Positions 7,188 to 47,807 of a stretch of 64,000 nucleotides of DNA are shown in pieces (positions within the stretch are counted from its first letter, which is position 1; each line of letters starts with the position of its first letter). Position numbers and translations under genes: made by a program. Under the pieces are notes generated by a model. The model was not told where the DNA came from and searched no databases. It worked only from the letters and a program-made list of their open reading frames with translations. The stretch spans positions 41,461,431 through 41,525,430 of the forward strand of contig OZ024882.1 in the NCBI GenBank assembly GCA_964017185.1. The letters run 5' to 3'. Origin of the DNA: Rugalucina vietnamica (taxonomy: Eukaryota > Mollusca > Bivalvia > Lucinida > Lucinidae).

Positions 7188-7226
7188 CTCAACTGAGCCA
7201 AAGACTCACTGGTGAGCTAATAGGTG
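7188..7226 (+). repeat. Isolated head hairpin of the tandem-repeat element
   Basis: A stem-loop of the form CTCAACTGAGCC...GGTGAGCTAATAGG, matching the element heads at 1779 and 15034. No unit repeats follow, so it is a solo or deleted head. Confidence 0.5.
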
Positions 7227-8384: not shown

Positions 8385-8387
8385 AAA

Positions 8388-19857: not shown

Positions 19858-19943
19858 CTAACTAAATGTTGTGAACCACTGCAGAAGCTGTGGGTGTGGT
19901 TAGGTACCTGTGATTCGATTCAAGCCCGCCAGTAATTCTATAT
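19858..19943 (+). repeat. E2 repeat, 5' part, split by the LTR retrotransposon
   Basis: CTAACTAAATG, ACCACTGCAGAAGCTG and AAGCCCGCCAGTAATTC match 11,872 onward and stop exactly at the LTR boundary. The continuation lies at 37,198. Confidence 0.8.
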
Positions 19944-20510
19944 TGTAGCCCCCCATGTCTGTCTACACCTGTCAGCAAACCAACATCGTTGTACATGAAT
20001 TTTTTTCTTCATGTACATTTTGGACATGAAACTGGGTCAATGGGTCTGACTTCGAGACAGATTTATTCATCTTGTAAGAATAATTTCTTTGTTCAAAATA
20101 CACTTTTTAGCATTAGTTACTTATGTACTTGTGCGCTATAACCTTTTTATTCGTGGCAGTTCTGCGCTTTTTAGAAATTCAGTCTACTTTCGTTTTCTCT
20201 TTCGTAACGTATGGTACTAGTATTCGGAAGACCGGAGTAGTTCGTCATTACCTGTTTCCCTTCGAAGTCCGTTTGTTTGACATAAATTAAATCCCATTTA
20301 AGTCCAATTCGCATCTTGTGAAGATGCTTTAAAGTCTGATATGCATAACTTTCCACTAGAAACCCTGTCCGATGAGTTTTTGTGCGAATTTGGATCGTCT
20401 ACGAAACTGAGTGACAAAATATGGCGTCTGTTTCTTCTTGCTAAAGATATTCGGTCACTCTCGGCTCTCTTCGCCTAGCGCCGAGAGTTCCAAATGTTTT
20501 TTTTGTATCG

Positions 20511-20590
20511 TGACGTTTGATTGGTCACGTCACTTTGTCACGTGGTTTCCCAAGACTATATATACGGCAATTTTCCTCAGCTTCAGTTGG
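20511..20590 (+). promoter_or_regulatory. LTR promoter: CRE-like sites, inverted CCAAT, E-box, TATA, Inr
   Basis: TGACGTTT (20511), ATTGG (20520-20524), ACGTCA (20527-20532) and CACGTG (20539-20544) precede TATATATA (20557-20564). TCAGTT (20583-20588) lies 28 nt from the TATA start to its A, which fits an initiator. The order and spacing are those of a standard RNA polymerase II core promoter, so transcription probably starts near 20585. The 3' LTR has the same arrangement. Confidence 0.7.
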
Positions 20591-20818
20591 GCTGTTGTCT
20601 TCGTGACGATAACCCACTACAGTTGCGTCCCTTGGAACTACAATAGACCACTTCGACCAACGAACTGCTATATACTACTTCAACAACTTCTCCAACTACT
20701 ATATAGTAGTTCAGCTCAGTCAGCTTACCCAACTGATATATACTACTTCAGCCAGAATCTGACAATGTCTAAACACTATGAAAGACACATTACTACCAAT
20801 GAAGAGGTTAATAATTCA

Positions 20819-22052
20819 CCCGGCGGTGGCACTCTTAAAATTTTTTTGACCCCATGCTCGTTCCACGTTTTTGAAAACACCCCCCTTATGTCGCAAAAAC
20901 AAGGACTTCCTGGAGCATTTTTACCCCCCTTTCATCGCAAAAACAAGGACTAACTGCTGTAAAAATACCCCCTTTCGCGCGAAAACAAGGATATTTGACA
21001 GATTTTATACCCCTTTTATCGCAAAAACAAGGACAGCCTACTGTCAAAATAACCCCCTTTTCAGAAAAACTTGGATATTGTACATAATTATTACCCCCTT
21101 ATATCGCAAAAACAAGGACAACCTGCTGTCAAAATACCCCCTTTTTTGGCAAAATCACGACATTGTACAAAGTTATCACCCCCTTTTATCGTAAAAACAA
21201 GGACAACCTACTGTCAAAATACCCCCCTTTTTTTTTGAAAACCAGGACATTGTACAAAATTATCACCCCCTTTTATCCAACCAACTAGTAAAGTCAAACC
21301 CACCCACCCCACCCACCAACTCCGTGATTGACCAACTTTTGAACCATCCAAATTCATGTGCGAAATTGCTATTTTAACTCTACATCCTTACCAAGCTCGT
21401 GCTGCCCCGGTGGGCAACCGCAGTATGCACACCTAACTGCCCCAAATTCACTTATGAAGCTACAGTCAGGGCAATTTCGGCAGGCCCCACGCCGATTGCC
21501 CCGACAATCGACGTCCATTTTAGTAAGTTTTGGAGCCGAGAAAAAATCCGACACAAGATGGAATATCCTCGTTGATTGGTTGATTTTATATGCATCTCAT
21601 CATTTATTTGTTGATTTTAAAAATCATTGTCCAATAGAAAAACGTTTTATAAAATTTGACTGGTTTGGTTTCCACAAAAAATTACGGAAAGTCCTCCCGT
21701 TCCCGTAAGCGTAAACGAAAACACCATTTCTGTGGGAAACGCGGAGGGGCGGAATTAAAATACCCCTTAACGCGGAGGGGCGGAATTTAAGTACCCCTAA
21801 CGCGGAATTAGAATCAGATAAAAACACCCCCTTTCCATCGAAAAATGCGGCGAGAGATTTTAAACACCCCTAAACGCGGAAATACAGTGAAATGAAAAAC
21901 ACCCCTAAATATGGAAAACGAGGAACCCGATCTGAAATTACCCCCCTTTTTACCGAAAACGCGGTCCGCGTTTTGACCTCAAAAGTACCCCCTTTTCCGC
22001 GATTTTTGGAACAAGCATGGTCCCAAAAAAATTCAAGAGTGACACCACCGGG
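20819..22052. mobile_element. 1.23-kb TIR DNA transposon with 8-bp target duplication
   Basis: Ends CCCGGYGGTGKCACTCTT in inverted orientation, flanked by ATAATTCA at 20811-20818 and 22053-22060. The 3' LTR has the empty site with a single ATAATTCA, proving insertion after the retrotransposon. The left part has about six degenerate ~60-bp tandem units, each with CGCAAAAACAAGGAC and CCCCCTTTT. The right part has repeated AACGCGGAGGGGCGGAAT and related blocks. An 8-bp duplication fits hAT, MULE, P or KDZ-type elements; the CCCGG start does not let me choose. A small Cys-rich ORF lies on its minus strand. Confidence 0.85.
21369..21554 (-). other. Short Cys-rich ORF within the 8-bp-TSD transposon
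   Basis: 61 codons. After a basic start it has C-R-G-N-R-R-G-A-C-R-N-C-P-D-C and then CAYCGCPPGQH, eight Cys and a His with zinc-ribbon-like spacing (CxxC ... CxxCxCPPxxH). It could be a remnant exon of the transposase or of a captured gene. No start context or splice sites are obvious and I do not recognise the family. Confidence 0.3.
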
Positions 22053-22104
22053 ATAATTCAGAATTAACTATTGTTTACCATTCCCCACCCACTTAATGGT
22101 TGAG

Positions 22105-23345
22105 TAGTTCAGTAGTCCCTGAACTTCTACGTAGCACTTCGAACTACTACGTATTACTTCTAACCCTAATTCACCAATATGAACCACTACGTACAACTTC
22201 CAAATACTAATATACCTTTATTAACTGTTACGTACCACTTGAACTGCTACGTACCACTTGAACTGCTACGTACTACTTCGGAACTACTATATATCACTAT
22301 GAACAGCCATGTAAGACTTCAAACCTTGGTAATGATCTCAGAAGTGCTCAGTAGCACTTGAACTGCTACGTACAGTTAAACCTCTATAAAAGCGCCACCT
22401 TTGGGAGTGAGCTAAGCTGGCTGTTATACACAGGTGGCTGTCTTATCAAGGTTCAGTCAGAGCAGTTGTCACGTAGAAAATACTCTTACTGTCACAAGAA
22501 AAATCCTTTGTAAGGAAGGACTACCTGTATCTGTTTCATAAGTTGACATCATTTCATGCTTCATTACACAAAAATATATACAAAGCCTCATGGGTATTAA
22601 CTTAATTGATTTTTTCTGCTAATTAACTGTTTTAAATACAATAATGAATAACAATTGTCCAATTAACAGCTTGTAAATGGGAAATTTGACTTTAGGCAAG
22701 TATGATGTGGCTGTCTTATAGAGAGTTATAAGCATTTTGGGATTGATTTTACTGGCTGCTGGTTGTCTTGTGGAGGTGGCTGTCTTATGCAGAGATAAAA
22801 TATAGTGAAAATGATTGGGACTGTTTCAAACTGGCTCTCTTATGCAGGTGGAGCTCTTATAAAGGTGGCTGATTCAGCAGGTTCAACTGTAGTACTTCAC
22901 AACTGCTACGTACCACTTGAACTGCTACGTACTACTTCGGACCTGCTATATAGCACTTGAACTGCTACGTACCATTTGAACTGCTATGAACCACTTGAAC
23001 CGCTACGTACTACTTCGGACCTACAATATAGCACTTGAACTGCTACGTATCACTTGAACTGCTATGTACCACTTGAACTGCCATATACCACTTGAACCGC
23101 TATGTACTACTTCAGAACTACTGTATACTACTATATAGCACTTGGACTGCTATGTACAACTTGAACTACTACGTAGTACTTGAACTGCTACGTACCACTT
23201 GAACTACTACGTACTACTTCAGAACTACTATGTAGCACTTGAACTGCTACGTACTGTTTGAATCACTATGTTATACTTCAAAATGCTGTTTATTATCTGA
23301 ACTACATGTACTACATACCACTTCAACGTCAAGTACTACTTGATT
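22105..23345 (+). repeat. TACGTA minisatellite of the 5' LTR (interrupted by a MITE)
   Basis: Degenerate ~19-20-bp units of the type CACTTGAACTGCTACGTAC repeat for about 0.7 kb, excluding the MITE at 22373-22889. Every few units contain the palindrome TACGTA. It lies downstream of the predicted transcription start, so it should be in the 5' leader. The same array is in the 3' LTR at 36,065-36,785. Confidence 0.85.
22373..22889. mobile_element. 517-bp Tc1/mariner-type MITE in the 5' LTR
   Basis: Ends CAGTTAAACCTCT and its near-complement AGGTTCAACTG, flanked by TA at 22371-22372 and 22890-22891. The 3' LTR shows the unoccupied site (GCTACG-TA-GTACTTC). The interior repeats 'CTTATAxAGGTGGCT' motifs near both ends. 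Non-autonomous. Confidence 0.85.
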
Positions 23346-23764
23346 TTGTGACATAAGTAACAACTAATTGATAGTCTCGTTGTCACTCTCTGTTGACCCA
23401 GATACATATATAACCTGATGATTTATTGCTCGTCTATATGCCATGTTCTGTTCACGTGTTCAGAGTTTATCGTTGGTTAAATTACAAAATTTAACTATTC
23501 TTCATTGTATTTTCAAGTCCATCTCGCACCAAAGTCCAACACCAAGCGGACTCACAACTGTAGCTCTTTCCCGGAAAACCAGATAGTGCCTTGTCCGATA
23601 CACTTATATTAATGTATAAATGAGATACTGGTTAAGCAACAAAACTGATTGTGACTTAGAAGCATGGTTGTGATAAAGGAGATCAAATCTGTCTAGATCA
23701 GACTCAAACCAAATAACGCCATCTGACAATTTTACCATCATCACCCCCCTTGCGAGCTACATTT

Positions 23765-23784
23765 TGGTGTCGTAGAAGTGGGAT
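23765..23784 (+). other. Primer-binding site
   Basis: Three bases past the 5' LTR the sequence TGGTGTC-GT-AGAAGTGGGAT begins with TGG, the complement of a tRNA CCA end. From memory it resembles the complement of a tRNA-Leu acceptor/T-arm end (TGGTGTCAGAAGTGGGAT) with two extra bases. The tRNA identity is inference. Confidence 0.6.
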
Positions 23785-24307
23785 AGAAATCAACCTTTTT
23801 CTGCCTTCAGGTGCTGATTTAAAGAGAGACAATCTGCGCAGTAGAAAATTGATCATTCCAGTCCATAGATCATTTCAACAGACACTGGCTACCTCTAGAA
23901 TCTTCCGTATCTGCTGTACAGTGTTTATGCCTGACCAGTCTGATTAGACATATTGAGCCAGAAGTTTACCATTTTGCAATGCACATTCAAAAATGATAAA
24001 CTGTTAATGATGGACAACAAAGAGAATAAACACACAACAACATATAAATTTTATTACAACAGAAGAGGTCTATTTTCAATTCATATTATCATTTCAGATA
24101 CAGTGAAAGTTTATGTCTTCTTAGAATCTTCACATCATAAGGTGATTAAATACATTGACGACATCTGCATCACTCCAATTTAGACTCTGATCAACTCATC
24201 TTCCTTAGCACCACCTGAAAGTAGAAAATAGAGCTTTTGATCATACCTTGGTGTATGGTGGGTGTGATTTGACTTGAAAATCAACAAATTCTTCAACATT
24301 ACAAATA

Positions 24308-25657
24308 ATGGCAGAAAATGTGGCAGAACAGCCTGCGGAGTTGCCGCTTCCTGGTCAACAGGAGGAGGGCAGCGATGATGAATCGGTTGTTTCCAATGAG
24401 CCAGACAACACTCATCAACTATCGCAACTAGAAAATGAATTAAAAGATGAAATGAGCTCCATTGCGAGACAGATTAAAGAGACCGTCTTAGGCATGAATC
24501 AACAAATGGAGAGAAAATTCTCCCAACTTGATCGACAAATGCACAACCTAGAATCGCATCTGCGTGACCAAAACAACAATCAGGCCATGTCGCACTTTAG
24601 AAATAGTACTCCCGTGCAAATTAATACAGATGGTGGTCTACCCTCGTCAAACCTGCCATTGACAAATTCCGTACCGAATAGCGAGAATGCGCTTAATCAC
24701 TTCCAACCATCTAGAGTTGATTTCAATCTACCAGGTACGACATCAAACACAGAAACCTCAACCAGTACTTCAAATACAGGGGCAGAGAACTCCATTAAGC
24801 TCAAACCACAAAACTTTACTGGTACCAATGATGACTTTGAGGATTTCTTGACTCAATTTGAGATTACGGCAGAGATTAATGGTTGGAGTTACCGATCGAA
24901 ATCATTGTACTTGGCCAACTGCTTGACGGGGGCTGCTCGAGCCCTGCTTAATGAACTCAGCGAAACACAGCGTCGTGATTTTCGATGTCTCGTACAAAAA
25001 CTTAAGGAGCGATTTGGGTCCGAAAACCGAGCTGAAGTGTTCCGTTCTCAATTAAAGGCTAGATCTAAGGGTAAAGGGGAGACTACTGCTGAATTAGCGC
25101 AAGCTATCCGTAAACTCACCAGACAAGCATACCCGCAAGTATCACTAGATATGGTCGAGGTCTTGAGTATTGACCACTTCATTGAGGCCTTACCAGAATC
25201 TGAAATCCGACTACGATTAAGAGAGGTTGGTCCTACAACTCTTGCAGAAGCAGAGCGCATAGCGGTTAGAATGGACGCACATAGGCAAGCTGACAAACAA
25301 CGAAACCGGTTTGTTGGCAAGGTAGAACAAAGCGAACAAAATAAGAGCTTTCAAGAGCAAAGCACAGCACAGCAAATGGAAGCAATTAGTAAGAGAATGG
25401 ACTCTCTTTCAAAATCTGTCCAAAATTTGACCAATCAACAAAGAACCCATGCACCAGTGTACCCTCGAAACTTCCAGAACTACGGCCCCAATCAGAGACC
25501 TAATAGACCAGGGTTTTATAACATCCCTCCACCAAGACACTTCCCACTAAGGGGAGGTAATCCCAGATTTCCTAATCAGCAAAATCAGAGAAATCAACCC
25601 AGACTGCAGGAAAACTTCCGTCAGCCTGTACAGGTGCCCAGAGCCAGGCTGAATTAA
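24308..25657 (+). CDS. gag: Gag polyprotein
   Basis: 449 aa; the main structural protein, expected to package element RNA into particles. Residues ~1-30 are acidic; ~35-85 are a likely coiled coil (QLENELKDEMSSIARQIKE, MNQQMERKFSQLDRQM); ~160-330 match the retrotransposon Gag/capsid fold in pattern, with FTGTNDDFEDFLTQFE, SLYLANCLTGAARALL, LKERFGSENRAEVFRSQL and ELAQAIRKLTRQAYP. The C-terminus (~370-449) is rich in Gln, Asn, Pro and Arg. I see no CCHC zinc knuckle, so RNA binding probably rests on the basic tail. The first ATG after the LTR leader with this long frame is used. The pol frame is -1 relative to gag and is open through the end of gag, so ribosomal frameshifting is possible, though no canonical slippery heptamer is evident. 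Confidence 0.93.
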   Translation: MAENVAEQPAELPLPGQQEEGSDDESVVSNEPDNTHQLSQLENELKDEMSSIARQIKETVLGMNQQMERKFSQLDRQMHNLESHLRDQNNNQAMSHFRNSTPVQINTDGGLPSSNLPLTNSVPNSENALNHFQPSRVDFNLPGTTSNTETSTSTSNTGAENSIKLKPQNFTGTNDDFEDFLTQFEITAEINGWSYRSKSLYLANCLTGAARALLNELSETQRRDFRCLVQKLKERFGSENRAEVFRSQLKARSKGKGETTAELAQAIRKLTRQAYPQVSLDMVEVLSIDHFIEALPESEIRLRLREVGPTTLAEAERIAVRMDAHRQADKQRNRFVGKVEQSEQNKSFQEQSTAQQMEAISKRMDSLSKSVQNLTNQQRTHAPVYPRNFQNYGPNQRPNRPGFYNIPPPRHFPLRGGNPRFPNQQNQRNQPRLQENFRQPVQVPRARLN

Positions 25658-25680
25658 ATGAGGGGCCCGAATTAATTGCC

Positions 25681-28600
25681 ATGCGACGAAACTGGTGCTT
25701 CGAGGAAGGTTATTTTGTTACTGTGACAATTGAGAACATACCTATTACTTTCTTAATTGACACTGGATCAAATATAACCATCTTGAGTAGGAGCTTGATG
25801 GAGCGAATGCCAGTCCACATTACTTCTTCTGTTCAACCTACAAATACAAAAATGTTGACCGTTACGGGGGAGGTAACTCCTTTTCTTGGGAAAACTGAAC
25901 ATGAACTCAAAATAGGGAAACAGAAATTTAAACATACACTGTTGATTGCTGATATTGAGAATGACGGCAACCTAGGTATGGACGTTTTAAAAGCCCATAA
26001 TTGCGACTTGGTACTTTCTCGACAAATTATGAAAATAAATGGGGAAGAAGTGTTGTGTTTCCCAAACAGCAGAAATCCGCCACTGCAATGCTGTGGAGTA
26101 GCTGTATTACAACCTGTACAGATTCCGCCAGAATCCGAAGTGATTGTACCCGGGTATACCAAGGGTGTCATAGACAAAAGTGGTACTGGTTTGATAGAAG
26201 CTCATGAGAAATTTGTGAACAACAAGGGTCTACTGGTTGCTAAAGCTTTGGTCTGCCCCACCACTGGCACGGTACCGGTCCGTATTGTAAACCCATATAG
26301 TGAAGGTTGCACTCTCTACAAGGACACCATCATCGCAACATATGAGCCTATAGAACCAGAGCAACTTGTGTCTGTGAATGCCACCCAGTCTCAAGAGTCA
26401 ACATCTGAGCCCTATAATAATCAAGGTATACCAGAGCATTTGAAAGAGCTTTACGCCAACAGCTCTAAACTACTCAACAATGATGAACAGTCTCGTCTAG
26501 AACAGCTTCTCATTGAGTATCAGGACCAGTTTTCCAAAGATTCACATGACCTGGGACGCTGTACCCTGTTAGAACATCATATCAACATTGTACCAGGTAC
26601 AAGACCAATCAAGCAACAGCCCTACAGGTTACCCCTAGCCAAACGACGCGAAGCCGAGGCTGAGATTGCGGCTATGGCCGAGAGAGATATAATCGAGCCT
26701 TCCACCAGTCCATGGTCTTCTCCTGCCATTATAGTACCCAAAAAGAATGGCGGGATAAGATTTTGTATTGACTACCGTCGCTTAAATAAAGTTACCATTC
26801 CTGACAGCATGCCGCTGCCTAGATGTGACGATTCTCTGGATGCTTTAGGTGGATCGAAATGGTTTTCTACCCTTGATCTTCGCTCAGGCTTTTTCCAGAT
26901 AGGTCTCGACAAAGAAAGTCGTCCTTTGACAGCGTTCTGCATACCGGGTAGCGGTTTATGGCAATTCAAAGTTGTCCCATTTGGAAGTATGACCAGCCCA
27001 GCTTGTTTTGAGCGGGTGATGGAAAGAGTTTTCTCTGGGCTTACATTTGTCACCCTACTGATCTACTTAGACGATATTATCGTCTTTGGCAAGACTTTTG
27101 ACACACATTTGAGAAACCTAGAAGAAGTTATGAAGCGACTAGAGGCATCAAACTTGAAACTGAACCCAGAAAAATGTGTGCTCTTTAACACCCATGTTTC
27201 CTTCCTAGGTCATCTGATCTCGTCTGAAGGTATAGAGGTAGATCCTGCAAAGACGAAAGTAGTACGAGATTGGCCTGTTCCAAAGAATGTATCAGAACTC
27301 AGGTCCTTTGGGGGACTATGTAGTTATATGAGAAAATTCATACAAGGATTTAGTTCCATATGTAAACCACTTCATGTACTTACTCAGAAAGACAAGAAGA
27401 TTGAATGGAATGACCAGTGTCAACTAGCATTTGAGAAACTGAAGTTAGCTTTGACCACAGCACCTGTTTTAGGTTTTCCACAGGACTCTCAGGGCATGTT
27501 TACTGTCGACACAGATGCTTCAAAGGATGCCCTTGGAGGAATTTTGTCACAAGAGCAAGACGGACAAGAGAGAGTGATTAGTTATTACAGCAAGTGCTTC
27601 AGCAAAGCCGAGAGACGATACTGCACCACACGCAGAGAGCTACTCGCCGTCGTCTGCTCAATAAAACAATTCCATGTTTATCTCTACGGGAGAAAGTTTA
27701 GAGTACGAAGTGATCACGGTAGCCTCAGATGGCTCATGAACTTCAAGATCTGTGAAGGCGCCCTAGCACGGATCCTGGAAACTCTGGCAATTTATGACTT
27801 CACCATTGAATATAGACCTGCCGCTGGGCACAAGAATGCAGACAGCGTTTCCCGTCGACCATGCATTGATCAAGCGTGCGCACATTGTGAAAGATTTGAG
27901 AAGAGATACAGTGAAAATTCACCTGGACTGGCCACCAGGAAAACCGGGGTTATGAGTGAGGAGAGTGTAACAAAGGGGGAAAGTCAGACGGAAAGCAAAG
28001 AGCACGAAGGTTCAACTGAAAAGCTGAAGGAACCAGTTCCTTCAGAAGATTGTATAGAAGAGAAAAGTGTGTGTTCGAAGCAGGGCGCGCTTCTAACGCA
28101 TAACTTGTTGAATGGTACCGAAAGCTTGTTGAATGGGGGGATCCGACAGAACACTACTCCCACTCCAGGTGGTCCACAGGAAAGTGAACATTCGCTCCCT
28201 AGAAAAGAGATACAACAGTCTCAAGGAGAGAATGAAAAATGCCGAATGAGTCTCGACTGCGAGTCCATACGGGTTCCTGAAACAACCCGGGAGGAGCAAC
28301 TAGAGCCGAGACCAAGAGTGGAAACTCAACTGTCCTGTTATAGCAGGGTGCCCAAAACCACCCTTGGGGGAGAGTTGAGTATGGACGAAAGTATGGACCC
28401 ATATCAACTGAGCTGTACTGAAGAGACGGACAGCGACAGTTCTTATTATGATGCTGAAGAATGGAGAGAGGAAATAAATAGCGACGAGGAAAAACAGAAT
28501 ATGAAGTCTGAGTCCACAAATGTGAGAAACATAGAAATAATCAACATAGACAGTCTAACGCCAGAGCACATCAAACATGAACAAGACCAGCAGCCGGAAA

Positions 28601-29064
28601 TTCATATGATAAAACAGTGGAAAAACAGTGACGAGAAACCAAACTGGGCCCAAATAGCACAGTATGGACCAGAATTAAAAGCATATTGGTCTTCCTGGGA
28701 ATCTCTAGTACTCATAGATGGTATATTGTATAAGAGAAAACCCAATGAAATGCCACTCGACAACAAACCACGAATAGTATTACCAACAAATCTACGAAAG
28801 AAATGCTTCACCCTGTTACATGATAATGTATCAGGTGCACACCTAGGCTCTCAAAAGACATTAGGTAAAATCAAAGAAAGATTCTACTGGTATGGTTGTC
28901 GTAAAGACATAGAGTATTGGTGCAGAACTTGTGATATCTGTGCCTCCAGAAAACCACCTTATAGACGGGCGAAAGCGCCAATGAAACAATTCAACGTGGG
29001 GTACCCTCTAGAGCGATGCAGCTTAGACATTATGGGACCATTACCCAGCCCCAACAATGCATGA
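25681..29064 (+). CDS. pol: Pol polyprotein: protease, reverse transcriptase, RNase H, integrase N-part
   Basis: 1,127 codons to an in-frame TGA. Aspartic protease: FLIDTGSNITIL with catalytic D27. RT: FCIDYRRLNKVTIPDSMPLP, FSTLDLRSGFFQI, and the active site YLDDIIVFG around residue 462. RNase H: TVDTDASKDALGGILS (~608), RRELLAVV and RSDHGSLRWL. A ~250-residue acidic/Ser-rich linker (~740-990) follows and is unusual. Then the integrase zinc-binding HHCC (HLGSQK..., CDICAS; ~1045-1100) and the first core motif SLDIMGPLP. The frame is open upstream of Met1 (AELNEGPELIAM), consistent with a Gag-Pol fusion. The TGA (29062-29064) falls within the integrase core, leaving the rest in the following segment. 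Confidence 0.95.
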   Translation: MRRNWCFEEGYFVTVTIENIPITFLIDTGSNITILSRSLMERMPVHITSSVQPTNTKMLTVTGEVTPFLGKTEHELKIGKQKFKHTLLIADIENDGNLGMDVLKAHNCDLVLSRQIMKINGEEVLCFPNSRNPPLQCCGVAVLQPVQIPPESEVIVPGYTKGVIDKSGTGLIEAHEKFVNNKGLLVAKALVCPTTGTVPVRIVNPYSEGCTLYKDTIIATYEPIEPEQLVSVNATQSQESTSEPYNNQGIPEHLKELYANSSKLLNNDEQSRLEQLLIEYQDQFSKDSHDLGRCTLLEHHINIVPGTRPIKQQPYRLPLAKRREAEAEIAAMAERDIIEPSTSPWSSPAIIVPKKNGGIRFCIDYRRLNKVTIPDSMPLPRCDDSLDALGGSKWFSTLDLRSGFFQIGLDKESRPLTAFCIPGSGLWQFKVVPFGSMTSPACFERVMERVFSGLTFVTLLIYLDDIIVFGKTFDTHLRNLEEVMKRLEASNLKLNPEKCVLFNTHVSFLGHLISSEGIEVDPAKTKVVRDWPVPKNVSELRSFGGLCSYMRKFIQGFSSICKPLHVLTQKDKKIEWNDQCQLAFEKLKLALTTAPVLGFPQDSQGMFTVDTDASKDALGGILSQEQDGQERVISYYSKCFSKAERRYCTTRRELLAVVCSIKQFHVYLYGRKFRVRSDHGSLRWLMNFKICEGALARILETLAIYDFTIEYRPAAGHKNADSVSRRPCIDQACAHCERFEKRYSENSPGLATRKTGVMSEESVTKGESQTESKEHEGSTEKLKEPVPSEDCIEEKSVCSKQGALLTHNLLNGTESLLNGGIRQNTTPTPGGPQESEHSLPRKEIQQSQGENEKCRMSLDCESIRVPETTREEQLEPRPRVETQLSCYSRVPKTTLGGELSMDESMDPYQLSCTEETDSDSSYYDAEEWREEINSDEEKQNMKSESTNVRNIEIINIDSLTPEHIKHEQDQQPEIHMIKQWKNSDEKPNWAQIAQYGPELKAYWSSWESLVLIDGILYKRKPNEMPLDNKPRIVLPTNLRKKCFTLLHDNVSGAHLGSQKTLGKIKERFYWYGCRKDIEYWCRTCDICASRKPPYRRAKAPMKQFNVGYPLERCSLDIMGPLPSPNNA

Positions 29065-29877
29065 TACCTGCTACTAGTCTCTTGTTATTTCACCAAGTGG
29101 TTGATGGTAATCCCTTTAGAAACTATAGATGCCAAAACTGTGGCTACCAAGCTCATAGAGAGGTTTGTATCAGTCTTTGGAGTGCCTGTTACCTTGCATA
29201 GCGACCAAGGATCCAATTTCCAAAGCAATGTGTTTCAAGAAGTGTGTTCGATACTAGGAATTGAAAAGACCCGCACCACGCCAGGTCGACCACAATCTGA
29301 TGGAATGATAGAGAGAGCTTGTCGCAGTGTTCAGTCAATGTTGGCTGCATATGTCAGTCAAAACCAGAGAGATTGGGCAACTTATATACCTTTGATAGTT
29401 CTAGCCTACAACTCTGCAGTGCACGACACAACTCGCTGTACACCCGACTCCCTCATGTTAGGTCGTCAACTTCGTCTCCCAATTGATCTAGCATTAGGTA
29501 CACCTGAAACGAGACCGAGCACAAGTGAAACAGATTACGCTTACTGCTTAGAACAACAACTTCTTCGCATACATGAGATTGCCCGAAAACACATCAAACT
29601 TAGTAGCGAAGGCATGAAAAGGTACTATGACCGCAATGCGAACTTCAAAGAATATGCTGTAGGTGATCCTGTATGGTATCTGTATGTTGAGCGGAAAGTA
29701 GGGATAAGTACCAAGTTGACTAGAAGTTGGAAAGGTCCTTACGTTATCACGCGGAAGTATGGCGACGTATTATATCAAATTCAACGCAATCCTCGCGGCA
29801 AGCCGAAGCTTGTACATGACAAACTCAAACCCTACTTGGGTGAGAATAAACCAACTTGGTTTAATGCGACACCGTAA
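29065..29877 (+). pseudogene. pol: Pol, integrase core and C-terminus beyond the in-frame stop
   Basis: This continues in the same reading frame after the TGA. It has the F-T-K-W strand, the second catalytic Asp in LHSDQGSNFQ, the catalytic Glu in GRPQSDGMIERACRS, then the helical LAYNSAVHDTTRCTP. The GPY/F-like C-terminal module follows (VWYLYVERKVG, SWKGPYVITRKYG, VHDKLKPYLG). No chromodomain follows. Only one codon interrupts an otherwise intact integrase, at a position usually occupied by Arg in the family; a CpG-transition nonsense mutation is a simple explanation. Read-through in vivo cannot be excluded. As written, this copy should make a truncated integrase. Confidence 0.9.
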
Positions 29878-30509
29878 GACAACAGTTGTTGACTATCCTA
29901 TCCCTTTGAAATACAGAGAGTGATATACGAGCAAACTAGGTTTACAGAGCTGGGATTGATATTTAGAAGCCTACATAAAATATGTCAGCACTTCGTCCAG
30001 AATCATAATTTCCAGTTAAGTTCATACAACTGCGAAACTTCAGACTTTTGAAATTTCATCGAGAGATATGACTCTACCGTTGATCTCCAGCTCTGTAAAA
30101 TTATATGACCATACCTCTTATTATTCTTACCATGAACTGAACCAGTGAGAAAGAGTCTGAGTTCACCTCTAGCTTCTGAAACACCAGACTCAATCATCCC
30201 AAGGCATGAAGTTTCTGAGTCATCATTAAACTGCTAGTCCCTAAATTGTCGCTGATCAGCTTGCTTTTGAGTCTTCACTGGGTCTGTCTTCTGAGTCATC
30301 ACTGATCCTCTAGTTCCCAAATCAACCCTGGGTGAGAGTCACCCTACAACATAGAACAACAAATACATGGTTATAATAGAAATTAAATGAGTCTGAACTG
30401 CTTTACAACTACAGCAAAATTTGCATATAACTGAAACTTTTGGTCTGAGTTTTAGTTATTGTGTCTGCTAGCTATCTACTGAGAGAATATAATGACGATA
30501 GATTGACCA
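29878..30509 (+). other. Non-coding spacer between pol and the accessory ORFs
   Basis: About 630 bp with no long frame. It contains runs of CTGAGTC/TCACTGATCC-type repeats (30,200-30,320). It might hold a splice acceptor or promoter for the accessory ORFs; none stands out. Confidence 0.45.
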
Positions 30510-31202
30510 ATGATTGAGAACTCAAGTACCCAGGTGAACATGGTCGGAAAGATCTTCTCGAAACAACTCACTTATACCTGTCGTACAACACTTGTTTTGC
30601 AGGGTTCCATGTTCCAGTGCCTGGTGTGTGTTGACAGGGCCTATGCTAAATACTATCAGGTTAAGAATCATCTGTTAGAGTACCACTCCGGCATCGGCTA
30701 CTATTGTGAGGTCTGTGACAAGACTTTCCCTCGTCGCCTTACTCACCTTAAGTGCCCAGCAAAACCACAGGACCTGGTAGTGTGCCACCGGGAAAGTCAG
30801 AAGAAGGGGGAGGAGGCCGAAGAGATACTCAACCACTATCGCTTCACCATAATGCCGTCCCACTGGAGAGAGCACAGCAAATCAGAGTGGGAAGTGGTCA
30901 AGAAATCCCTACCCAACCCAAAAGCAGAATTTCATGTTCCGGCACCGATCAGTCCTCTGCGTCATAGCCCTCTTCCTCGTAAGAGCCCACTGGAACGGGT
31001 TGACCCGGGAAAACCACCCATGACCTACTGCAGAACAAGGAAACGTCCGTCCGCCACAGCCTCAGCCACTCCACCATGCGAGGGCAAGAGAACTCGGGAC
31101 AGTTCAAGAGGATTTAGGCCAGGAACCGATGGACATATTGGACTATCCCCTGGGATGTCAGCCCCTGAAGCCAAATCCTGCTTGGAAGGGCGTCCATTTT
31201 GA
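30510..31202 (+). CDS. Accessory ORF 3: C2H2-like zinc-finger protein of the retrotransposon
   Basis: 230 codons, in the place where env lies in retrovirus-like elements. Residues ~35-62 form a C2H2-like finger (FQCLVCVDRAYAKYYQ, then H-x4-H in NHLLEYH). A second degenerate finger follows at ~69-87 (YYCEVCDKTFPRRLTHLKC, Cys replacing the last His). The rest is basic and Pro-rich with nuclear-signal-like runs (RTRKRPSATAS, EGKRTRD). There is no signal peptide or transmembrane segment, so it is not an envelope protein. The final ~25 codons overlap ORF 4 in another frame, and the sequence of this frame becomes less protein-like there. The two may be one gene with a +1 shift. Function unknown; nucleic-acid or protein binding is an inference. 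Confidence 0.75.
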   Translation: MIENSSTQVNMVGKIFSKQLTYTCRTTLVLQGSMFQCLVCVDRAYAKYYQVKNHLLEYHSGIGYYCEVCDKTFPRRLTHLKCPAKPQDLVVCHRESQKKGEEAEEILNHYRFTIMPSHWREHSKSEWEVVKKSLPNPKAEFHVPAPISPLRHSPLPRKSPLERVDPGKPPMTYCRTRKRPSATASATPPCEGKRTRDSSRGFRPGTDGHIGLSPGMSAPEAKSCLEGRPF

Positions 31203-32862
31203 CCCACCCATCAAGGTCACCACCAATTTGTCAGACAGTTCCAGTGAGGATGATGATGACTTCATCGAGGTGCCCGAGCCTGAAGTGATAATGTCTGTGG
31301 ATGACATCCTAGCAAAGCATAAAAACCACAAAGACGACACTGATGAAAACAACAACAACAGAAATGATAAAGACATAAATAAAAAATCTCAACCTACAGT
31401 AAAATCCAAAGTCGTAAAAGTAGACGCGACCACAAAAACAAATTCAACAGTGAAATCGTCCACAACTGAAACAACCAAATCAAAGAACAATGAAACAAAA
31501 CCCAATTCTACTAAGAAACAATCAAAAACTACTGAATCCAAAAGTAAAACAACTGAAAATCCACGAGAGACTTCTGAAAGTGAAAATAAATCAACCGAGG
31601 CTCAACTAGATACACATGAAACTACAAATAAACCAACAAACAAACAACACAAGACACTGGAAAGTAAAAATAATTCAAATGAGGACCCACAAAAGAGACT
31701 TGATAATAAAAGTAAGACAAGTGACATTCAACCAAAGACATGTGAAACCAAAAATAAATCAACAGACACACAACCAAAGACATGTGAAACCAAAAGTAAA
31801 TCAACCGAGACTCAACCAAAGACATGTGAAACTAAAGCTAAATCCACCAACGCTCAAACAAAGACATGTGAAACTAAAAATAAATCAACAGACACACAAC
31901 CAAAGACATGTGAAACCAAAAGTAAATCAACCGAGACTCAACCAAAGACATGTGAAACCAAAAACAAATCAACTGACGTCCAACCAAAGACTTCTGAAAC
32001 TAAAAAGACTCAGCAAAAGACTTCTGAAACAAAAATCAAATCAACAAATGAATCTAAAACCACAAAACCAACAAAACCTAGAACTATCAGTGACAATAAA
32101 AACAGTAAAGATAATTCTGAAACAACTACTTCGACAAACTATGAACATGTAACTGATACCAGGAGAGTTGAACTGAAAGCCACCTGCCCCAGAATGCCAG
32201 TACAACCAGACACAGAAGTCCAGTCAGGTCACATTGACCTGACTATTGTTGACGACCGACCTACCGTCACGATACCTGGGAGCATGTCAACTGAAGCCAT
32301 ATCTCAACCACGACCATCAACCAGACTTGACTCCTCAATGGACATTCAACCCTTCATTATGGAAGAGGGAGATTGTAGGGCGTTTCTCGCTGACAATATT
32401 AGATTACGGCATCCAACCTCAACCACATTAAGATCCGCCACCCCAAGACCAATAGACATGTCAAGACGGTTAGCGGAGGAACTTAGTTCAAACATTCTAA
32501 GGCATTTACAACACTCACAGGAGGAACAATTAATTCTTCGCATCGGAGAAAGAGATTTCTGTACGTCCAGAGTCATGTTAAGGGCGGACTCTGAGTCCAT
32601 ATTTGCTGCAATGTTGGAGCCCGATAGCCCTTTTCGTCCCTATGGACGTAATATGTATTTTATAGATAGGGATAGTACCCATTTCAGATTAATTCTGATG
32701 TACCTAAGGAACGGGGCCCATATTGATGCCGGAGTACTCCCAGACGACAGGCGGTCCCTCCTGGAGTTATTGGTGGAGGCTCGTTTCTACATGTGCCAGC
32801 GGTTGCAGGAGATTATCTGCGAAAAACTCCAGCAGGTAACTGGGAGCAAGGATCAGTTCTGA
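31129..32862 (+). CDS. Accessory ORF 4: repeat-rich protein with C-terminal KCTD-type BTB (T1) domain
   Basis: 577 codons. Residues ~35-50 are a Ser/Asp/Glu patch (SDSSSEDDDDFIEVPEPE). Residues ~65-335 are Lys/Thr/Ser-rich low complexity with six 14-aa repeats (PKTCETKNKSTDTQ type). Residues ~464-565 are a BTB domain of the KCTD/Kv-T1 class: LILRIGERDFCTSRVML, IFAAMLEPDSPF, MYFIDRDSTHFRLILMYLRN and LLELLVEARFYMCQRLQEI. In KCTD proteins this domain oligomerises and often binds cullin-3; here that is only inferred. The frame is open for at least 60 nt upstream of the ATG and overlaps ORF 3. It lies inside the element between pol and the 3' LTR, so it travels with it. I know of no standard Ty3/Gypsy protein with this domain, which points to capture of a host gene. 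Confidence 0.85.
   Translation: MDILDYPLGCQPLKPNPAWKGVHFDPPIKVTTNLSDSSSEDDDDFIEVPEPEVIMSVDDILAKHKNHKDDTDENNNNRNDKDINKKSQPTVKSKVVKVDATTKTNSTVKSSTTETTKSKNNETKPNSTKKQSKTTESKSKTTENPRETSESENKSTEAQLDTHETTNKPTNKQHKTLESKNNSNEDPQKRLDNKSKTSDIQPKTCETKNKSTDTQPKTCETKSKSTETQPKTCETKAKSTNAQTKTCETKNKSTDTQPKTCETKSKSTETQPKTCETKNKSTDVQPKTSETKKTQQKTSETKIKSTNESKTTKPTKPRTISDNKNSKDNSETTTSTNYEHVTDTRRVELKATCPRMPVQPDTEVQSGHIDLTIVDDRPTVTIPGSMSTEAISQPRPSTRLDSSMDIQPFIMEEGDCRAFLADNIRLRHPTSTTLRSATPRPIDMSRRLAEELSSNILRHLQHSQEEQLILRIGERDFCTSRVMLRADSESIFAAMLEPDSPFRPYGRNMYFIDRDSTHFRLILMYLRNGAHIDAGVLPDDRRSLLELLVEARFYMCQRLQEIICEKLQQVTGSKDQF
31734..31990 (+). repeat. 42-bp coding repeats in ORF 4
   Basis: Six near-identical 42-bp units keep the reading frame (14 residues each; CCAAAGACATGTGAAACC starts most units). 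One pair of units is duplicated almost exactly, suggesting recent expansion. Confidence 0.9.
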
Positions 32863-35135
32863 TTGGTTCTTGGTCCTGGGGACTTGCTCGAGTGGTAGTC
32901 TCCTGTAATCGTGGGAGCCTTCACCTTTAGCTCAGGTAATTTTCGCCTCTCTTCTGGTGGTTGCTAAATTCTGAAATTAATAGTAGAAATTCATTTTGCT
33001 GTAAAAATCTTTCTATATTCAAATAATGTAATCTTTTACTTTTTTTTGAATGGTTATCAAATTGTAATATTATTTAGGCCTTAAACATTTTTCAGACCAT
33101 TCAAAACTTTATAGGCTGATTTATGTCCGTGTTCCTTGGTACATCTTATCTCTTTCTGCGCAAGTTAATAAAAGTGTCAGTGATATATTTGTGATAAATT
33201 CAAAGGATTCTGTGTTATAAATGAAAATGGATATTCTGCGGAAAAATAGTGTTACCTATATTACGCGATACAATATATAGATCTGGATCACAGAATTTGA
33301 TAATGTATAGATAAATACATAGTATACCCATTCCAGTCTACTTGAAGGTATTGGTTCAAGATAGTCTGTCATCTTGGTATGAAGTAGTTAACTGTCTCAA
33401 GTACCTGTTGAAAGATACATATCAAATAAATAACTGAATTATTAAGTTAAATCATCTTTGTTCTGGCGAAGTTAGTTTACGGGGAGCAATCTTTGCCAAA
33501 TACTGCATTTTTCTTAAATTATCTATTTCCAAGTCTGATAATTTGACAGAGGTGGCTCTTCCTTGAAATGACCTTTTCAGGACAACTAGATGCTCATATC
33601 TAGAAGGTTTATGGTAGACTTTTTATAAATTCTTAAAGGAAATAGTAATGTTTTCTTTGTTACATTAGTTGCTAATTTGTTAGCATTGTAGAGTTTCTGG
33701 TCAAAGGGAGATAATCCAGAGTTTGAAACCATTCAACTACACTATAGTGAGACATATACCTAGGCTGTTCTTGCATGGTTCAGATTTTAGTTGAGAACCT
33801 GTAAATATGTTTGTATTACTGAAATAGTTGTCAGGGATGCAACTGCAGGAGTGAATGGTATGATGATGAAATATTTCTCACTACAAATTTTCAATGTCCG
33901 GATGGTGAGATAGTTTTTCATTTTCATTATAGACTGCATGAATTCTTGAGCTCTTATAAGCTGTTTCGAGTTAGTGTTTTGTTCTTTATGGAGCACAAGA
34001 AAAGCGTGAAAGTTGTTTTAGTTACCTTTGGAGTAAATGTTTGTTCTGACTGAATGACAATACATGATGTCTGTGCATGCTCGTCTGATTCTGTGCACCT
34101 TGTCTGATGGTTGAAGAAACCTGTGTAACAAATACGAACAATGTTAGGATTTCTCATGACAAGGGATAAAATTAATTTAATCAGATAAAGTCATAGATAT
34201 TTAGAATGAATGATATGTGTAAATGTAGTTTTCTTGTTACAAATTCACAAATATGTCTGCAATGATTAAATTATGAGTAATACTTTTGATTTTCATGAAC
34301 CATGATGTTTGAATGAACTTTCAAGATTATCATGAGCAACGGCAATGATGATAGAACATTTAAGAATGAGTTCAAGACATAATAATCTCATTATATTACT
34401 CATTCCATATTTGAAGCAGATAATTTCAACTTGTGAAATGTTAGCGTAAATGTTTACAGTATGACTGAGATTTTGTTAATTAAGTTATGAAGATTTCCGG
34501 ATGCTAGGATACTTTTCCGAATGCTTGACAACCTGATGTTCTCGATCCAACCCCAATTTATTGTTGAGACCTACTTCCTCTTGATAGACAGTTATCCATA
34601 TCCTCAAGACCTGCCCTTTAGTTCAGTATATACCTGATGTGATGTGGTGCGACCTCTTCCTTTACTTAACCCGATCATTGATAGACCTTCTCTTCTTGTT
34701 AGCATTCGGAAAGACACCTGTATCTTGGGATATTACTGTAAAATAGCAGCATGGATTTAAAATATATGTTTGTATAAATAACATGATGTTACTTAAATGC
34801 ATTTATTGAAAGTTTGTTTGATAAGGTTGAATGAGCATTTGAAGTTTTGTCCAAGGTTGTCAAATTTAAGAATTCTCTGAGTGCTGAAAGAGAACACTTT
34901 TGCTCAAGTCAAGGCATAAATGTATATTTAGTTTTCTTATTGATATAGTATGTAAAATGGCATACTTCATAATTTTGATTCTGATGTACAGATGCTGTGT
35001 TGGATGACAGATATGATGTTGTGTTTGATGACAGATTGTAGACAGATAATTGTGGTTCTGATCAGACTTAAACATCCACATTTCCATGCTATATACTCTG
35101 CTTGCCTTCCGATTTGGGGACCAAATCCTTTTTCT
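32863..35135 (+). other. Long 3' non-coding region of the retrotransposon
   Basis: 2.27 kb without a coherent frame, between ORF 4 and the polypurine tract. It is AT-rich and not visibly repeated. It is unusually long for the family; it may be a captured 3' UTR of the BTB gene or a decayed coding region. Confidence 0.5.
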
Positions 35136-35148
35136 AGGGAGGGTGCAA
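35136..35148 (+). other. Polypurine tract
   Basis: AGGGAGGGTGCAA directly precedes the 3' LTR start TGTAGCC, the expected plus-strand primer position. Confidence 0.75.
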
Positions 35149-35713
35149 TGTAGCCCCCCATGTCTGTCTACACCTGTCAGCAAACCAACATCGTTGTACA
35201 TGATTTTTTTTCTTCATGTACATTTTGGACATGAAACTGGGTCAATGGGTCTGACTTCGAGACAGATTTATTCATCTTGTTAGAATAATTTCTTTGTTCA
35301 AAATAGTTTAGCATTAGTTACTTATGTACTTGTGCGCTATAACCTTTTTATTCGTGGCAGTTCTGCGCTTTTTAGAAATTCAGTCTACTTTCGTTTTCTC
35401 TTTCGTAACGTATGGTACTAGTATTCGGAAGACCGGAGTAGTTCGTCATTACCTGTTTCCCTTCGAAGTCCGTTTGTTTCACATAAATTAAATCCCATTT
35501 AAGTCCAATTCGCATCTTGTGAAGATGCTTTAAAGTCTGATATGCATAACTTTCCACTAGAAACCCTGTCCGATGAGTTTTTGTGCGAATTTGGATCGTC
35601 TACGAAACTGAGTGACAAAATATGGCGTCTGTTTCTTCTTGCTAAAGATATTCGGTCACTCTCGGCTCTCTTCGCCTAGCGCCGAGAGTTCCAAATGTTT
35701 TTTTTTTGTATCG

Positions 35714-35793
35714 TGACGTTTGATTGGTCACGTCACTTTGTCACGTGGTTTCCCAAGACTATATATACGGCAATTTTCCTCAGCTTCAGTTGG
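35714..35793 (+). promoter_or_regulatory. Promoter block of the 3' LTR
   Basis: Same order as in the 5' LTR: TGACGTTT, ATTGG, ACGTCA, CACGTG, TATA at 35760, Inr-like TCAGTT at 35786. It could drive transcription into the DNA downstream of the element. Confidence 0.65.
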
Positions 35794-36064
35794 GCTGTTG
35801 TCTTCGTGACGATAACCCACTACAGTTGCGTCCCTTGGAACTACTATAGACCACTTCGACCAACGAACTGCTATATACTACTTCAACAACTTCTCCAACT
35901 ACTATATAGTAGTTCAGCTCAGTCAGCTTACCCAACTGATATATACTACTTCAGCCAGAATCTGACAATGTCTAAACACTATGAAAGACACATTACTACC
36001 AATGAAGAGGTTAATAATTCAGAATTAACTATTGTTTACCATTCCCCACCCACTTAATGGTTGA

Positions 36065-36785
36065 GTAGTTCAGTAGTCCCTGAACTTCTACGTAGCACTT
36101 CGAACTACTACGTATTACTTCTAACCCTAATTCACCAATATGAACCACTACGTACAACTTCCAAATACAAATATACCTTTATTAACTGTTACGTACCACT
36201 TGAACTGCTACGTACCACTTGAACTGCTACGTACTACTTCGGAACTACTATATACCACTATGAACAGCCATGTTAGACTTCAAACCTTGGTAATGATCTC
36301 AGAAGTGCTCAGTAGCACTTGAACTGCTACGTAGTACTTCACAACTGCTACGTACCACTTGAACTGCTACGTACTACTTCGGACCTGCTATATAGCACTT
36401 GAACTGCTACGTACCATTTGAACTGCTATGAACCACTTGAACCGCTACGTACTACTTCGGACCTACAATATAGCACTTGAACTGCTACGTATCACTTGAA
36501 CTGCTATGTACCACTTGAACTGCTATATACCACTTGAACCGCTATGTACTACTTCAGAACTACTGTATACTACTATATAGCACTTGGACTGCTATGTACA
36601 ACTTGAACTACTACGTAGTACTTGAACTGCTACGTACCACTTGAACTACTACGTACTACTTCAGAACTACTATGTAGCACTTGAACTGCTACGTACTGTT
36701 TGAATCACTATGTTATACTTCAAAATGCTGTTTATTATCTGAACTACTACATACCACTTCAACGTCAAGTACTACTTGATTTTGT
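36065..36785 (+). repeat. TACGTA minisatellite of the 3' LTR
   Basis: Uninterrupted version of the ~19-20-bp CACTTGAACTGCTACGTAC array. Confidence 0.85.
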
Positions 36786-37197
36786 GACATAAGTAACAAC
36801 TAATTGATAGTCTCGTTGTCACTCTCTGTTGACCCAGATACATATATAACCTGATGATTTATTGCTCGTCTATATGCCATGTTCTGTTCACGTGTTCAGA
36901 GTTTATCGTTGGTTAAATTACAAAATTTAACTATTCTTCATTGTATTTTCAAGTCCATCTCGCACCAAAGTCCAACACCAAGCGGACTCACAACTGTAGC
37001 TCTTTCCCGGAAAACCAGATAGTGCCTTGTCCGATACACTTATATTAATGTATAAATGAGATACTGGTTAAGCAACAAAACTGATTGTGACTTAGAAGCA
37101 TGGTTGTGATAAAGGAGATCAAATCTGTCTAGATCAGACTCAAACCAAATAACGCCATCTGACAATTTTACCATCATCACCCCCCTTGCGAGCTACA

Positions 37198-37473
37198 ATA
37201 TTACTGATCGTTCCAAGGCGATACTTCTGTGGTGGTTCAACTTGTTTTATGTCTTGGTTTTTTTGTTTGTTTGTTTTTTTACATTTTTAGTTAAGTTTAG
37301 GTAACTAAGTGGCCACCTATTGGGAAAATAGCTGCTTATTCGGCTTACGATATGTTTTCATGGTATAAGTACCTAATTGTTAATTTAGTTTTTTCCCACC
37401 TCGGTTTTCGGAGTGGGGCTCTCTTTCTGGTTGCGCCTTTTCCTGGTCGTTGCCTACTTGTACCGTATGTAGA
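37198..37473 (+). repeat. E2 repeat, 3' part
   Basis: It starts with the target duplication ATAT and continues TTACTGATCGTTCCAAGGCG through TGCCTACTTGTACCG, completing the E2 copy begun at 19,858. Confidence 0.8.
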
Positions 37474-47647: not shown

Positions 47648-47712
<65 letters not shown>

Positions 47713-47762
47713 AATCATCGTAATCATGATCAATAATAATAATAATAATCATCATCATCATT

Positions 47763-47807
<45 letters not shown>

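What the first reader, a model, noticed from the sequence alone, without database searches (positions are those of the whole stretch)
30510..32862. LTR retrotransposon carrying a captured zinc-finger plus KCTD-type BTB module in the env position
Seen: two long ORFs between pol and the polypurine tract; ORF 3 has C2H2-like fingers and ORF 4 ends in a T1/KCTD BTB domain (FIDRDSTHFRLILMYLRN, LLVEARFY). Known: this BTB class oligomerises and many KCTD proteins recruit cullin-3 ubiquitin ligase; Ty3/Gypsy elements normally encode only Gag-Pol, sometimes Env. Inference: the element acquired a host regulatory gene, which may modify host defence, particle fate or transcription.
Basis: partly seen in the sequence, partly recalled or inferred. 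Interest (0 to 1): 0.92.

Follow-up and report, generated by a model that had tools for sequence, protein, structure and literature searches.

The report
Jumping genes with zinc-finger-BTB cargo gene
A family of virus-like jumping genes in an animal genome (probably a clam-like mollusc) carries, where related viruses keep their envelope gene, a gene for a zinc-finger protein fused to a host-type BTB assembly domain; selection preserves it and near-identical elements can carry different versions of it.

Summary
Observation confirmed, with one correction: ORF 3 and ORF 4 are one gene, split by a frame change in this copy. The element is a 17.3-kb Ty3/Gypsy retrotransposon (19944-37197). Other copies have the env-position gene as one frame (770, 784 aa): finger-like motifs, charged linker, KCTD-type BTB (Pfam E 8e-10). 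It marks a clade: of 43 scored integrases at >=49% identity, 42 are followed by the BTB (fingers seen in 34, 8 not read); of 99 less similar ones none gave a BTB hit. Six of the 99 were read: finger-like ORFs, no BTB. BTB dN/dS is 0-0.065 in six pairs. A splice-acceptor-like AG precedes the fingers in seven lineages, suggesting env-like expression. Two elements 99.3% identical in gag-pol and 98.9% after the gene are 71.7% identical across it: a cassette exchange. CUL3 recruitment is not supported: key contacts are lost. I favour an oligomeric nuclear factor acting on the element's own LTR repeat array; that step is inference.

The parts
19944..23761 (+). 5' LTR, 3818 bp, TG...CA; about 1.2 kb (20819-22052) and 0.5 kb (22373-22888) have no counterpart in the 3' LTR
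   Evidence: self-BLAST blocks 98.7-99.2% identical; ends by exact match
19940..19943 (.). 4-bp target-site duplication ATAT (left copy)
   Evidence: flanks printed; a similar uninterrupted stretch, a paralogue of the insertion site, lies at 11897-12272
37198..37201 (.). 4-bp target-site duplication ATAT (right copy)
23762..23785 (+). primer-binding-site side of the 5' LTR; tRNA not identified
24308..25657 (+). gag, first ATG to stop; overlaps pol in another frame
25576..29064 (+). pol: protease, RT, RNase H, integrase zinc-binding part; ends at an in-frame stop inside integrase in this copy
   Evidence: Pfam RVT_1 4.6e-37, RT_RNaseH_2 2.5e-31, Asp_protease_2 1.7e-11, Integrase_H2C2 1.5e-18
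29065..29877 (+). rest of integrase: catalytic core and C-terminal part
   Evidence: Pfam rve 1.1e-11, Integrase_p58_C 1.1e-8
30583..30602 (+). predicted splice acceptor of the env-position gene (pyrimidine-rich tract + AG), 15 nt before the first finger cysteine codon at 30618
   Evidence: same place in representatives of lineages A, B, C, E, F, G, H
30618..30755 (+). two C2H2/C2HC-like fingers
   Evidence: pattern in sequence; Pfam zf hits below cutoff; aligned with relatives
31516..32006 (+). 42/126-bp tandem repeats coding the Lys/Thr-rich part of the linker
   Evidence: TRF
32536..32805 (+). KCTD-type BTB (T1) domain
   Evidence: Pfam BTB_2 8e-10; AlphaFold model and Foldseek to KCTD10/13
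35134..35148 (+). polypurine tract
   Evidence: sequence before the 3' LTR
35149..37197 (+). 3' LTR, 2049 bp
35866..36742 (+). array of 19-bp units (AACTGCTACGTACCACTTG-like), 26 units with at most 4 mismatches; a TATA-like match at 35760 lies upstream (one of ten such matches in this LTR)
   Evidence: 24 units in the 5' LTR

Best explanation
A clade of Ty3/Gypsy LTR retrotransposons carries, between pol and the 3' LTR, one accessory gene for a protein with N-terminal zinc fingers, a long charged linker and a C-terminal KCTD-type BTB. SHOWN by sequence: the gene belongs to the element, marks the clade, is under purifying selection and is exchanged between elements as a cassette. PREDICTED: it is expressed like env, from a spliced subgenomic RNA. 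INFERRED: the BTB assembles it into a pentamer-like oligomer and the fingers bring it to nucleic acid, most likely the short tandem units in the element's own LTR, so that it works as a self-made chromatin or transcription factor (insulator-like or anti-silencing). Exchange of cassettes would then follow host counter-adaptation or changes of the LTR array.
For: Linkage: 35 of 43 integrase hits at >=49% identity have a BTB hit 1.1-3.6 kb downstream, one more in L040, six more in L043-L048: 42 of 43; fingers seen in 34 of these 42, 8 not read. 0 of 99 integrases <49% have a BTB hit. gag-pol-ZnF-BTB follow in order in L037-L040 and L035. Selection: BTB dN/dS 0, 0, 0.036, 0.036, 0.061, 0.065; ZnF 0.12 and 0.15 in the two diverged pairs; linker 0.12-0.46 in five of six. 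Splicing: AG 15 nt before the first Cys codon in 21 of 22 loci where the finger pattern was found; in lineage G it is TAG, a stop, so not kept as a codon; no ATG before the fingers in 5 of 7 lineages. Cassette: gag-pol 6026/6068, gene 1235/1722, after it 462/467 identical. One BTB source: 18 retroelement BTBs plus P0006 lie on one side of a 100/96 branch. LTR arrays with different units in lineages A and F.
Against: No expression, binding or localisation data. The fingers are below Pfam cutoffs and only two, few for a site-specific DNA binder. No splice donor was found, and one G copy lacks the acceptor AG. LTR arrays were looked at in only two lineages, and tandem repeats in LTRs are common. 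The 43rd integrase (L055) has finger/linker remains but no BTB hit, and L036 keeps an integrase end and fingers without a BTB hit. 17 of 52 BTB sites have no integrase hit upstream; of seven of these read, one is a host gene, two (L031) are host-like, three are gene remnants, one (L042) shows no ORF of this type. The genome screens scored only 62 of 746 BTB and 142 of 3026 integrase candidates. In near-identical pairs with few changes BTB dN/dS reaches 0.57 and 0.82, and one linker pair gives 1.8 (p 0.55).
Confidence: 0.5

Rival explanations
1. The gene is a CUL3 adaptor: the BTB docks the cullin, and the fingers or linker hold a host defence protein for ubiquitination.
For: Nearest solved relatives KCTD10/KCTD13 bind CUL3 (PMC5664961, passages seen). 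Of the KCTD7 contacts, D98 is kept in 19 of 19 aligned retroelement BTBs and Y131 is Tyr in 5 and Phe in 14. Burro elements of planarians carry ubiquitination-type domains (PMC6431247, passages seen).
Against: KCTD7 contacts R84, H85 and R65 are kept in none of the 19 aligned retroelement BTBs; the a2-b3 loop is the least conserved of five regions compared and is largely deleted in lineage F; three mollusc host KCTDs keep Arg-His. Known binders also vary in this loop, so binding is not excluded.
Confidence: 0.17
2. The protein acts in the particle or RNP: the fingers bind element RNA and the BTB scaffolds assembly or transport.
For: Pfam found no zinc knuckle in Gag, so a finger protein could supply RNA binding; the LTR array lies downstream of a TATA-like match, so it may be in the RNA.
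Against: Six of six distant elements read have the finger-like ORF without BTB; the gene is exchanged while pol stays nearly identical, which fits an interaction with a changing partner better.
Confidence: 0.25
3. A recent passenger gene or an assembly error; ORF3 has no role for the element.
For: The window copy is broken.
Against: 42 of 43 linkage and dN/dS far below 1; in three cases a relative of the gene and a pol of the same clade sit on a contig of the same exact length in other sources.
Confidence: 0.02

Closest known systems
Ty3/Gypsy (Metaviridae) LTR retrotransposons with env or env-like ORF3, including plant 'additional ORF' elements (PMC7264820 search listing only; PMC11963269 passages)
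   Same: LTRs, gag, PR-RT-RH-IN, extra gene between pol and 3' LTR, predicted spliced expression
   Different: The extra gene is ZnF-linker-KCTD BTB; Pfam finds no envelope domain in it
Bdelloid rotifer LTR retrotransposons with captured ORF3 (PMC5408684, passages seen)
   Same: Non-env ORF3 in the env position, shared between element types, family-specific
   Different: Those are GDSL esterase, DEDDy exonuclease, coiled-coil or TM proteins; the paper reports no significant departure from neutrality, whereas here BTB dN/dS is 0-0.065 in six pairs
Burro giant Gypsy elements of planarians (PMC6431247, passages seen)
   Same: Animal Gypsy with ubiquitination/apoptosis-type extra domains
   Different: MATH-TRAF, BIR, ankyrin, BCL2-like; the word BTB does not occur in that text
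Drosophila gypsy insulator: 12 reiterated Su(Hw) sites bound by the host ZnF protein Su(Hw), with the BTB protein CP190 (PMC6441048, passages seen; that Mod(mdg4) has a BTB is recalled)
   Same: Reiterated sites in a Gypsy element, ZnF plus BTB
   Different: There both proteins are the host's; here the element would encode both parts in one protein (binding untested)
KCTD family
   Same: BTB_2/T1 fold closest to KCTD10/KCTD13
   Different: C-terminal BTB behind fingers; CUL3-contact Arg-His lost; protein ends soon after the BTB
KCTD1 isoform b, a Crypton fused to a KCTD gene (PMC3212892, passages seen)
   Same: Joins a transposon-derived part and a KCTD BTB
   Different: Opposite direction: a host gene gained transposon sequence

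Membership tests
Ty3/Gypsy (Metaviridae) | PR-RT-RNase H-integrase order | tested here: met
   same order in L035 and L037-L040
Ty3/Gypsy (Metaviridae) | two LTRs with TG..CA ends and 4-6 bp target duplication | tested here: met
   (window copy only); in lineage F only a presumed 3' LTR start was seen
Ty3/Gypsy (Metaviridae) | tRNA primer-binding site next to the 5' LTR | tested here: inconclusive
   sequence at 23762 seen; not compared with a tRNA set; no tRNA gene in window
Errantivirus-like (env-bearing) | membrane fusion Env protein | not tested
   ORF3 matches ZnF and BTB models only; no transmembrane prediction was run
Env-like expression | subgenomic spliced RNA | tested here: inconclusive
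   acceptor conserved; donor not found; no RNA data
KCTD family | T1/BTB_2 domain | tested here: met
KCTD family | oligomer (mostly pentamer) | not testable with these tools
   only monomer models offered
CUL3-binding KCTD | contacts named for KCTD7 in PMC10856315 (R65, D74, M76, M80, R84, H85, D98, Y131) | tested here: inconclusive
   R65, R84, H85 kept in 0 of 19 aligned rows; D98 in 19; Y131 Tyr in 5, Phe in 14; M76 mostly Leu; lineage H did not align. Known binders vary at these places
C2H2 zinc-finger proteins | Cys/His finger pattern, scored by Pfam | tested here: inconclusive
   all finger hits below gathering cutoff; the cysteine/histidine pattern itself is kept across lineages

The most novel reading that the evidence does not exclude
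A retrotransposon lineage carries its own insulator or anti-silencing system: a spliced env-position gene encodes a ZnF-BTB protein that oligomerises on tandem arrays in the element's LTRs, and elements swap this gene as a cassette to keep ahead of host silencing or to match new arrays.
Probability: 0.3. Interest if true: 0.92.

Novelty: new variant of a known kind. Interest (0 to 1): 0.8.

Why it matters
The accessory genes of LTR retrotransposons named in the papers I saw are mostly envelope, fusogen or enzyme genes of uncertain benefit. Here a whole clade keeps a gene that looks like a host chromatin or ubiquitin adaptor under strong purifying selection, and near-identical elements can differ only in which version they carry. 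That makes an old question testable: do retrotransposons encode their own regulators against host silencing, and does the host drive their exchange? It also gives a natural series of ZnF-KCTD proteins without key CUL3-contact residues.

Tried and rejected
Rejected: assembly error or single host gene (42 of 43 linkage); two separate genes (single frame in relatives); recent single capture (synonymous sites saturated in the pairs compared between lineages A-G); CUL3 adaptor as first choice.

Led nowhere: viral contigs and genome-contig scans found no relative (13 and 21 pattern matches, none confirmed); splice donor search; tRNA and Rfam scans of the window gave nothing. A plasmid search with the integrase gave three records, the best a Wolbachia-labelled one at 44.6%, not followed. 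A genome-wide count of the window's LTR was asked 15 times and never answered.

Literature: seven searches aimed at precedents listed no paper that I recognised, from title and start of abstract, as reporting a BTB or KCTD gene inside an LTR retrotransposon. Six of the seven showed only the top rows of longer lists; only open-licence PMC text is held, and no Repbase. Searches were on other subjects.
Full report
WHAT IS THERE. The finding lies inside a Ty3/Gypsy-type LTR retrotransposon at window 19944-37197. The 5' LTR is 19944-23761 (3818 bp), the 3' LTR 35149-37197 (2049 bp); shared blocks are 98.7-99.2% identical. The ends are TGTAG...CTACA, the 4-bp target duplication is ATAT, and a polypurine tract precedes the 3' LTR. 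A similar uninterrupted stretch, a paralogue of the insertion site, lies in the same window at 11897-12272. Gag (ATG 24308) and pol overlap; pol has protease, RT, RNase H and integrase domains, with an in-frame stop inside integrase in this copy.

ONE GENE, NOT TWO. Database proteins P0001 (773 aa, 98% identical) and P0002 (720 aa) have both parts in one frame, and two other copies in the same genome have single frames of 770 and 784 aa. The order is two C2H2/C2HC-like fingers, a Lys/Thr/Glu-rich linker partly made of tandem repeats, and a C-terminal KCTD-type BTB. Pfam BTB_2 E = 8e-10. An AlphaFold model of the last 160 residues has mean pLDDT 81.8 with the BTB core mostly above 90. Foldseek's best solved matches are KCTD10 (TM by target 0.87 for the best chain) and KCTD13 (0.88-0.90), followed by chains of KCTD1, 16, 17, 15, 5, 9 and 7.

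A CLADE FEATURE. The window lies on contig C14 of a 1.09-Gb, 47-contig genome. A search with P0002 gave 79 matches; 62 of 746 candidates were scored. A search with the window's integrase scored 142 of 3026 candidates, with a gap between 49% and 42% identity. Of 43 hits at 49% or more, 35 have a BTB hit 1.1-3.6 kb downstream on the same strand. One more has it in L040. I read 5 kb downstream of six of the seven exceptions and all six carry fingers, linker and BTB, whole or broken. The seventh (L055, four stops in its integrase) has finger/linker remains and no BTB hit. So 42 of 43 have the BTB. Fingers were seen with it in 34 of the 42; the other 8 were not read. One further locus, L036, keeps an integrase end and fingers but gave no BTB hit. 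Of 99 integrase hits below 49%, none has a BTB hit, but that screen is a lower bound. I read six of the 99 (L049-L054): all six have an ORF with finger-like motifs after or fused to integrase (best finger model E from 2.8e-4 to 0.12, none at cutoff), and none shows a BTB at Pfam E <= 0.5. The finger ORF therefore looks older and the BTB a gain of this clade; homology of the fingers was not tested. 17 of 52 BTB sites had no integrase hit upstream. I read seven of these 17: L041 is a host DUSP-KCTD gene, L031 holds two host-like copies, L018, L022 and L024 are remnants of this gene, and L042 shows no ORF of this type.

OTHER GENOMES. Database relatives P0002, P0004, P0008 and P0010 are 81, 76, 61 and 55% identical to the window's BTB part. 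P0002's best-scoring match in this genome is 61% identical, with short pieces up to 81%, so it comes from elsewhere (inference). Among 120 listed pol hits most are unnamed; named ones include MAGs labelled Sedimenticola and Thiodiazotropha (symbionts of clams, recalled), Pinctada, Ruditapes and Patella, but also arachnids (Cordylochernes, Trichonephila) and a few others. A bivalve host is my inference.

SELECTION. NG86 on pairs of open copies. BTB dN/dS: 0.036 (F_C8/F_C4d), 0.036 (F_C8/F_C10), 0.061 (B_C9a/B_C11a), 0.065 (A_C13/A_C9), 0 (F_C8/F_C13c, H_C13b/H_C11c); Fisher p 2e-29 to 0.01. ZnF: 0.12 and 0.15 in the two diverged F pairs, 0.25-0.27 (p about 0.2) in two near-identical pairs, 0 in one, no change in one. 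Linker: 0.12-0.46 in five pairs, 1.8 (p 0.55) in F_C8/F_C13c. A_C13/B_C9a, between lineages, is saturated at synonymous sites. In one search near-identical BTB pairs with one to five changes gave scattered values, up to 0.57 and 0.82.

CASSETTE EXCHANGE. F_C4c (L038) and F_C8 (L035) are identical at 6026/6068 sites in gag-pol, 902/927 between pol and the gene, 1235/1722 in the gene and 462/467 after it. Identity falls at the first finger and returns just before the stop. F_C10 against F_C4c is 1720/1744 across the gene, so two gene types occur on one element backbone. In B_C9a/B_C11a the break is in the linker: 879/895 before, 790/1091 after, and the sequence stays different downstream (276/436). 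E_C4b/E_C7c share a pol at 95-100% per 150-nt step with a gene at about 50-75%. Of the other six pairs, B_C14/B_C11a shows the same break as B_C9a/B_C11a, four (B_C9a/B_C14, F_C10/F_C4d, F_C10/F_C4c, A_C9/A_C13) are 88-100% throughout, and G_C2c/G_C4e is 86-98% up to the BTB and diverges from there on. Recombination between co-packaged RNAs is the ordinary route (recalled); the low dN in the exchanged parts argues against hypermutation.

EXPRESSION. Of 31 BTB-clade loci in the set, 22 matched the finger pattern, and in 21 of these a pyrimidine-rich tract ends in AG exactly 15 nt before the first finger cysteine codon; one of two G copies lacks the AG. These cover lineages A, B, C, E, F, G and H. 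In G it reads TAG, a stop in the gene's frame, so it is not kept as a codon. In B, C, F, G and H there is no ATG between the upstream stop and the fingers, so the start should come from another exon, as with env; A and E do have upstream ATGs. L049, L050 and L054 of the outgroup have a similar AG at the ORF start; L052 and L053 do not obviously. Lineages D and I were not examined. No donor was found.

MECHANISM. CUL3: of the KCTD7 contact residues named in PMC10856315 (passages seen), R84, H85 and R65 are replaced or deleted in all 19 aligned retroelement BTBs; D98 is kept in all 19, Y131 is Tyr in 5 and Phe in 14; three mollusc host KCTDs keep Arg-His. Of five regions compared, the a2-b3 loop is the least conserved (mean entropy 2.1), b3-a3 the most (0.99). 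This favours conserved folding and assembly over cullin docking, but does not exclude it. The window LTRs hold 24 and 26 copies of a 19-bp unit (at most 4 mismatches), downstream of a TATA-like match, one of many in these LTRs. The presumed 3' LTR of F_C8 holds ten exact copies of the core of an unrelated 16-bp unit, also downstream of a TATA-like match, and the same array recurs upstream of gag in two of four F copies. An oligomeric finger protein acting on such arrays would resemble the gypsy insulator, where 12 reiterated Su(Hw) sites are bound by a host ZnF protein with BTB partners (PMC6441048, passages seen). Binding is untested here.

ORIGIN. In a tree of 40 BTBs, the 18 retroelement rows plus the Pecten protein P0006 (long branch) lie on one side of a 100/96 branch; the grouping of the 18 alone has 65/45. 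One capture from a host KCTD is likely, not proven; lineage H was left out because it did not align.

NOVELTY. Extra genes in LTR retrotransposons are known: bdelloid rotifers (PMC5408684, passages), Burro (PMC6431247, passages), plants (PMC11963269, passages), and sORFs of the MDG1 group, which lie upstream of gag (PMC11952523, one section and passages). I recognised no report of a BTB/KCTD gene in one among the papers listed by seven searches of an open-licence library.

Noticed in passing
L031 (C1:18664850-18674750, minus strand): Two copies 5.9 kb apart of a KCTD-type gene (ORFs 596 and 399 aa) flank ORFs that look like a MULE-type transposase (judged by eye), as if a DNA transposon carries a host KCTD gene.
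   Followed up: partly
L049-L054: Six distantly related Gypsy elements read here all carry an ORF with finger-like motifs at or after the integrase end, without BTB; some are Ser/Thr- or Pro-rich.
   Followed up: partly
window 1-15000: Dense array of diverged direct and inverted repeats with roughly 450-bp offsets.
   Followed up: no
window 20819-22052 and 22373-22888: About 1.2 kb and 0.5 kb of the 5' LTR are absent from the 3' LTR, the first with 43/85-bp C-rich tandem repeats.
   Followed up: no
window 47636-48290: A further tandem repeat array outside the element.
   Followed up: no
L041 7255-8301 and 9054-9470: Host DUSP-KCTD gene in separate exons, with the Arg-His loop that the retroelement BTBs lack.
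   Followed up: partly
plasmid record NZ_CP087956.1 (hit H1): A Wolbachia-labelled 5.3-kb plasmid record encodes a Gypsy-type integrase 44.6% identical to the window's (E 1e-58); possibly host sequence filed as plasmid.
   Followed up: no
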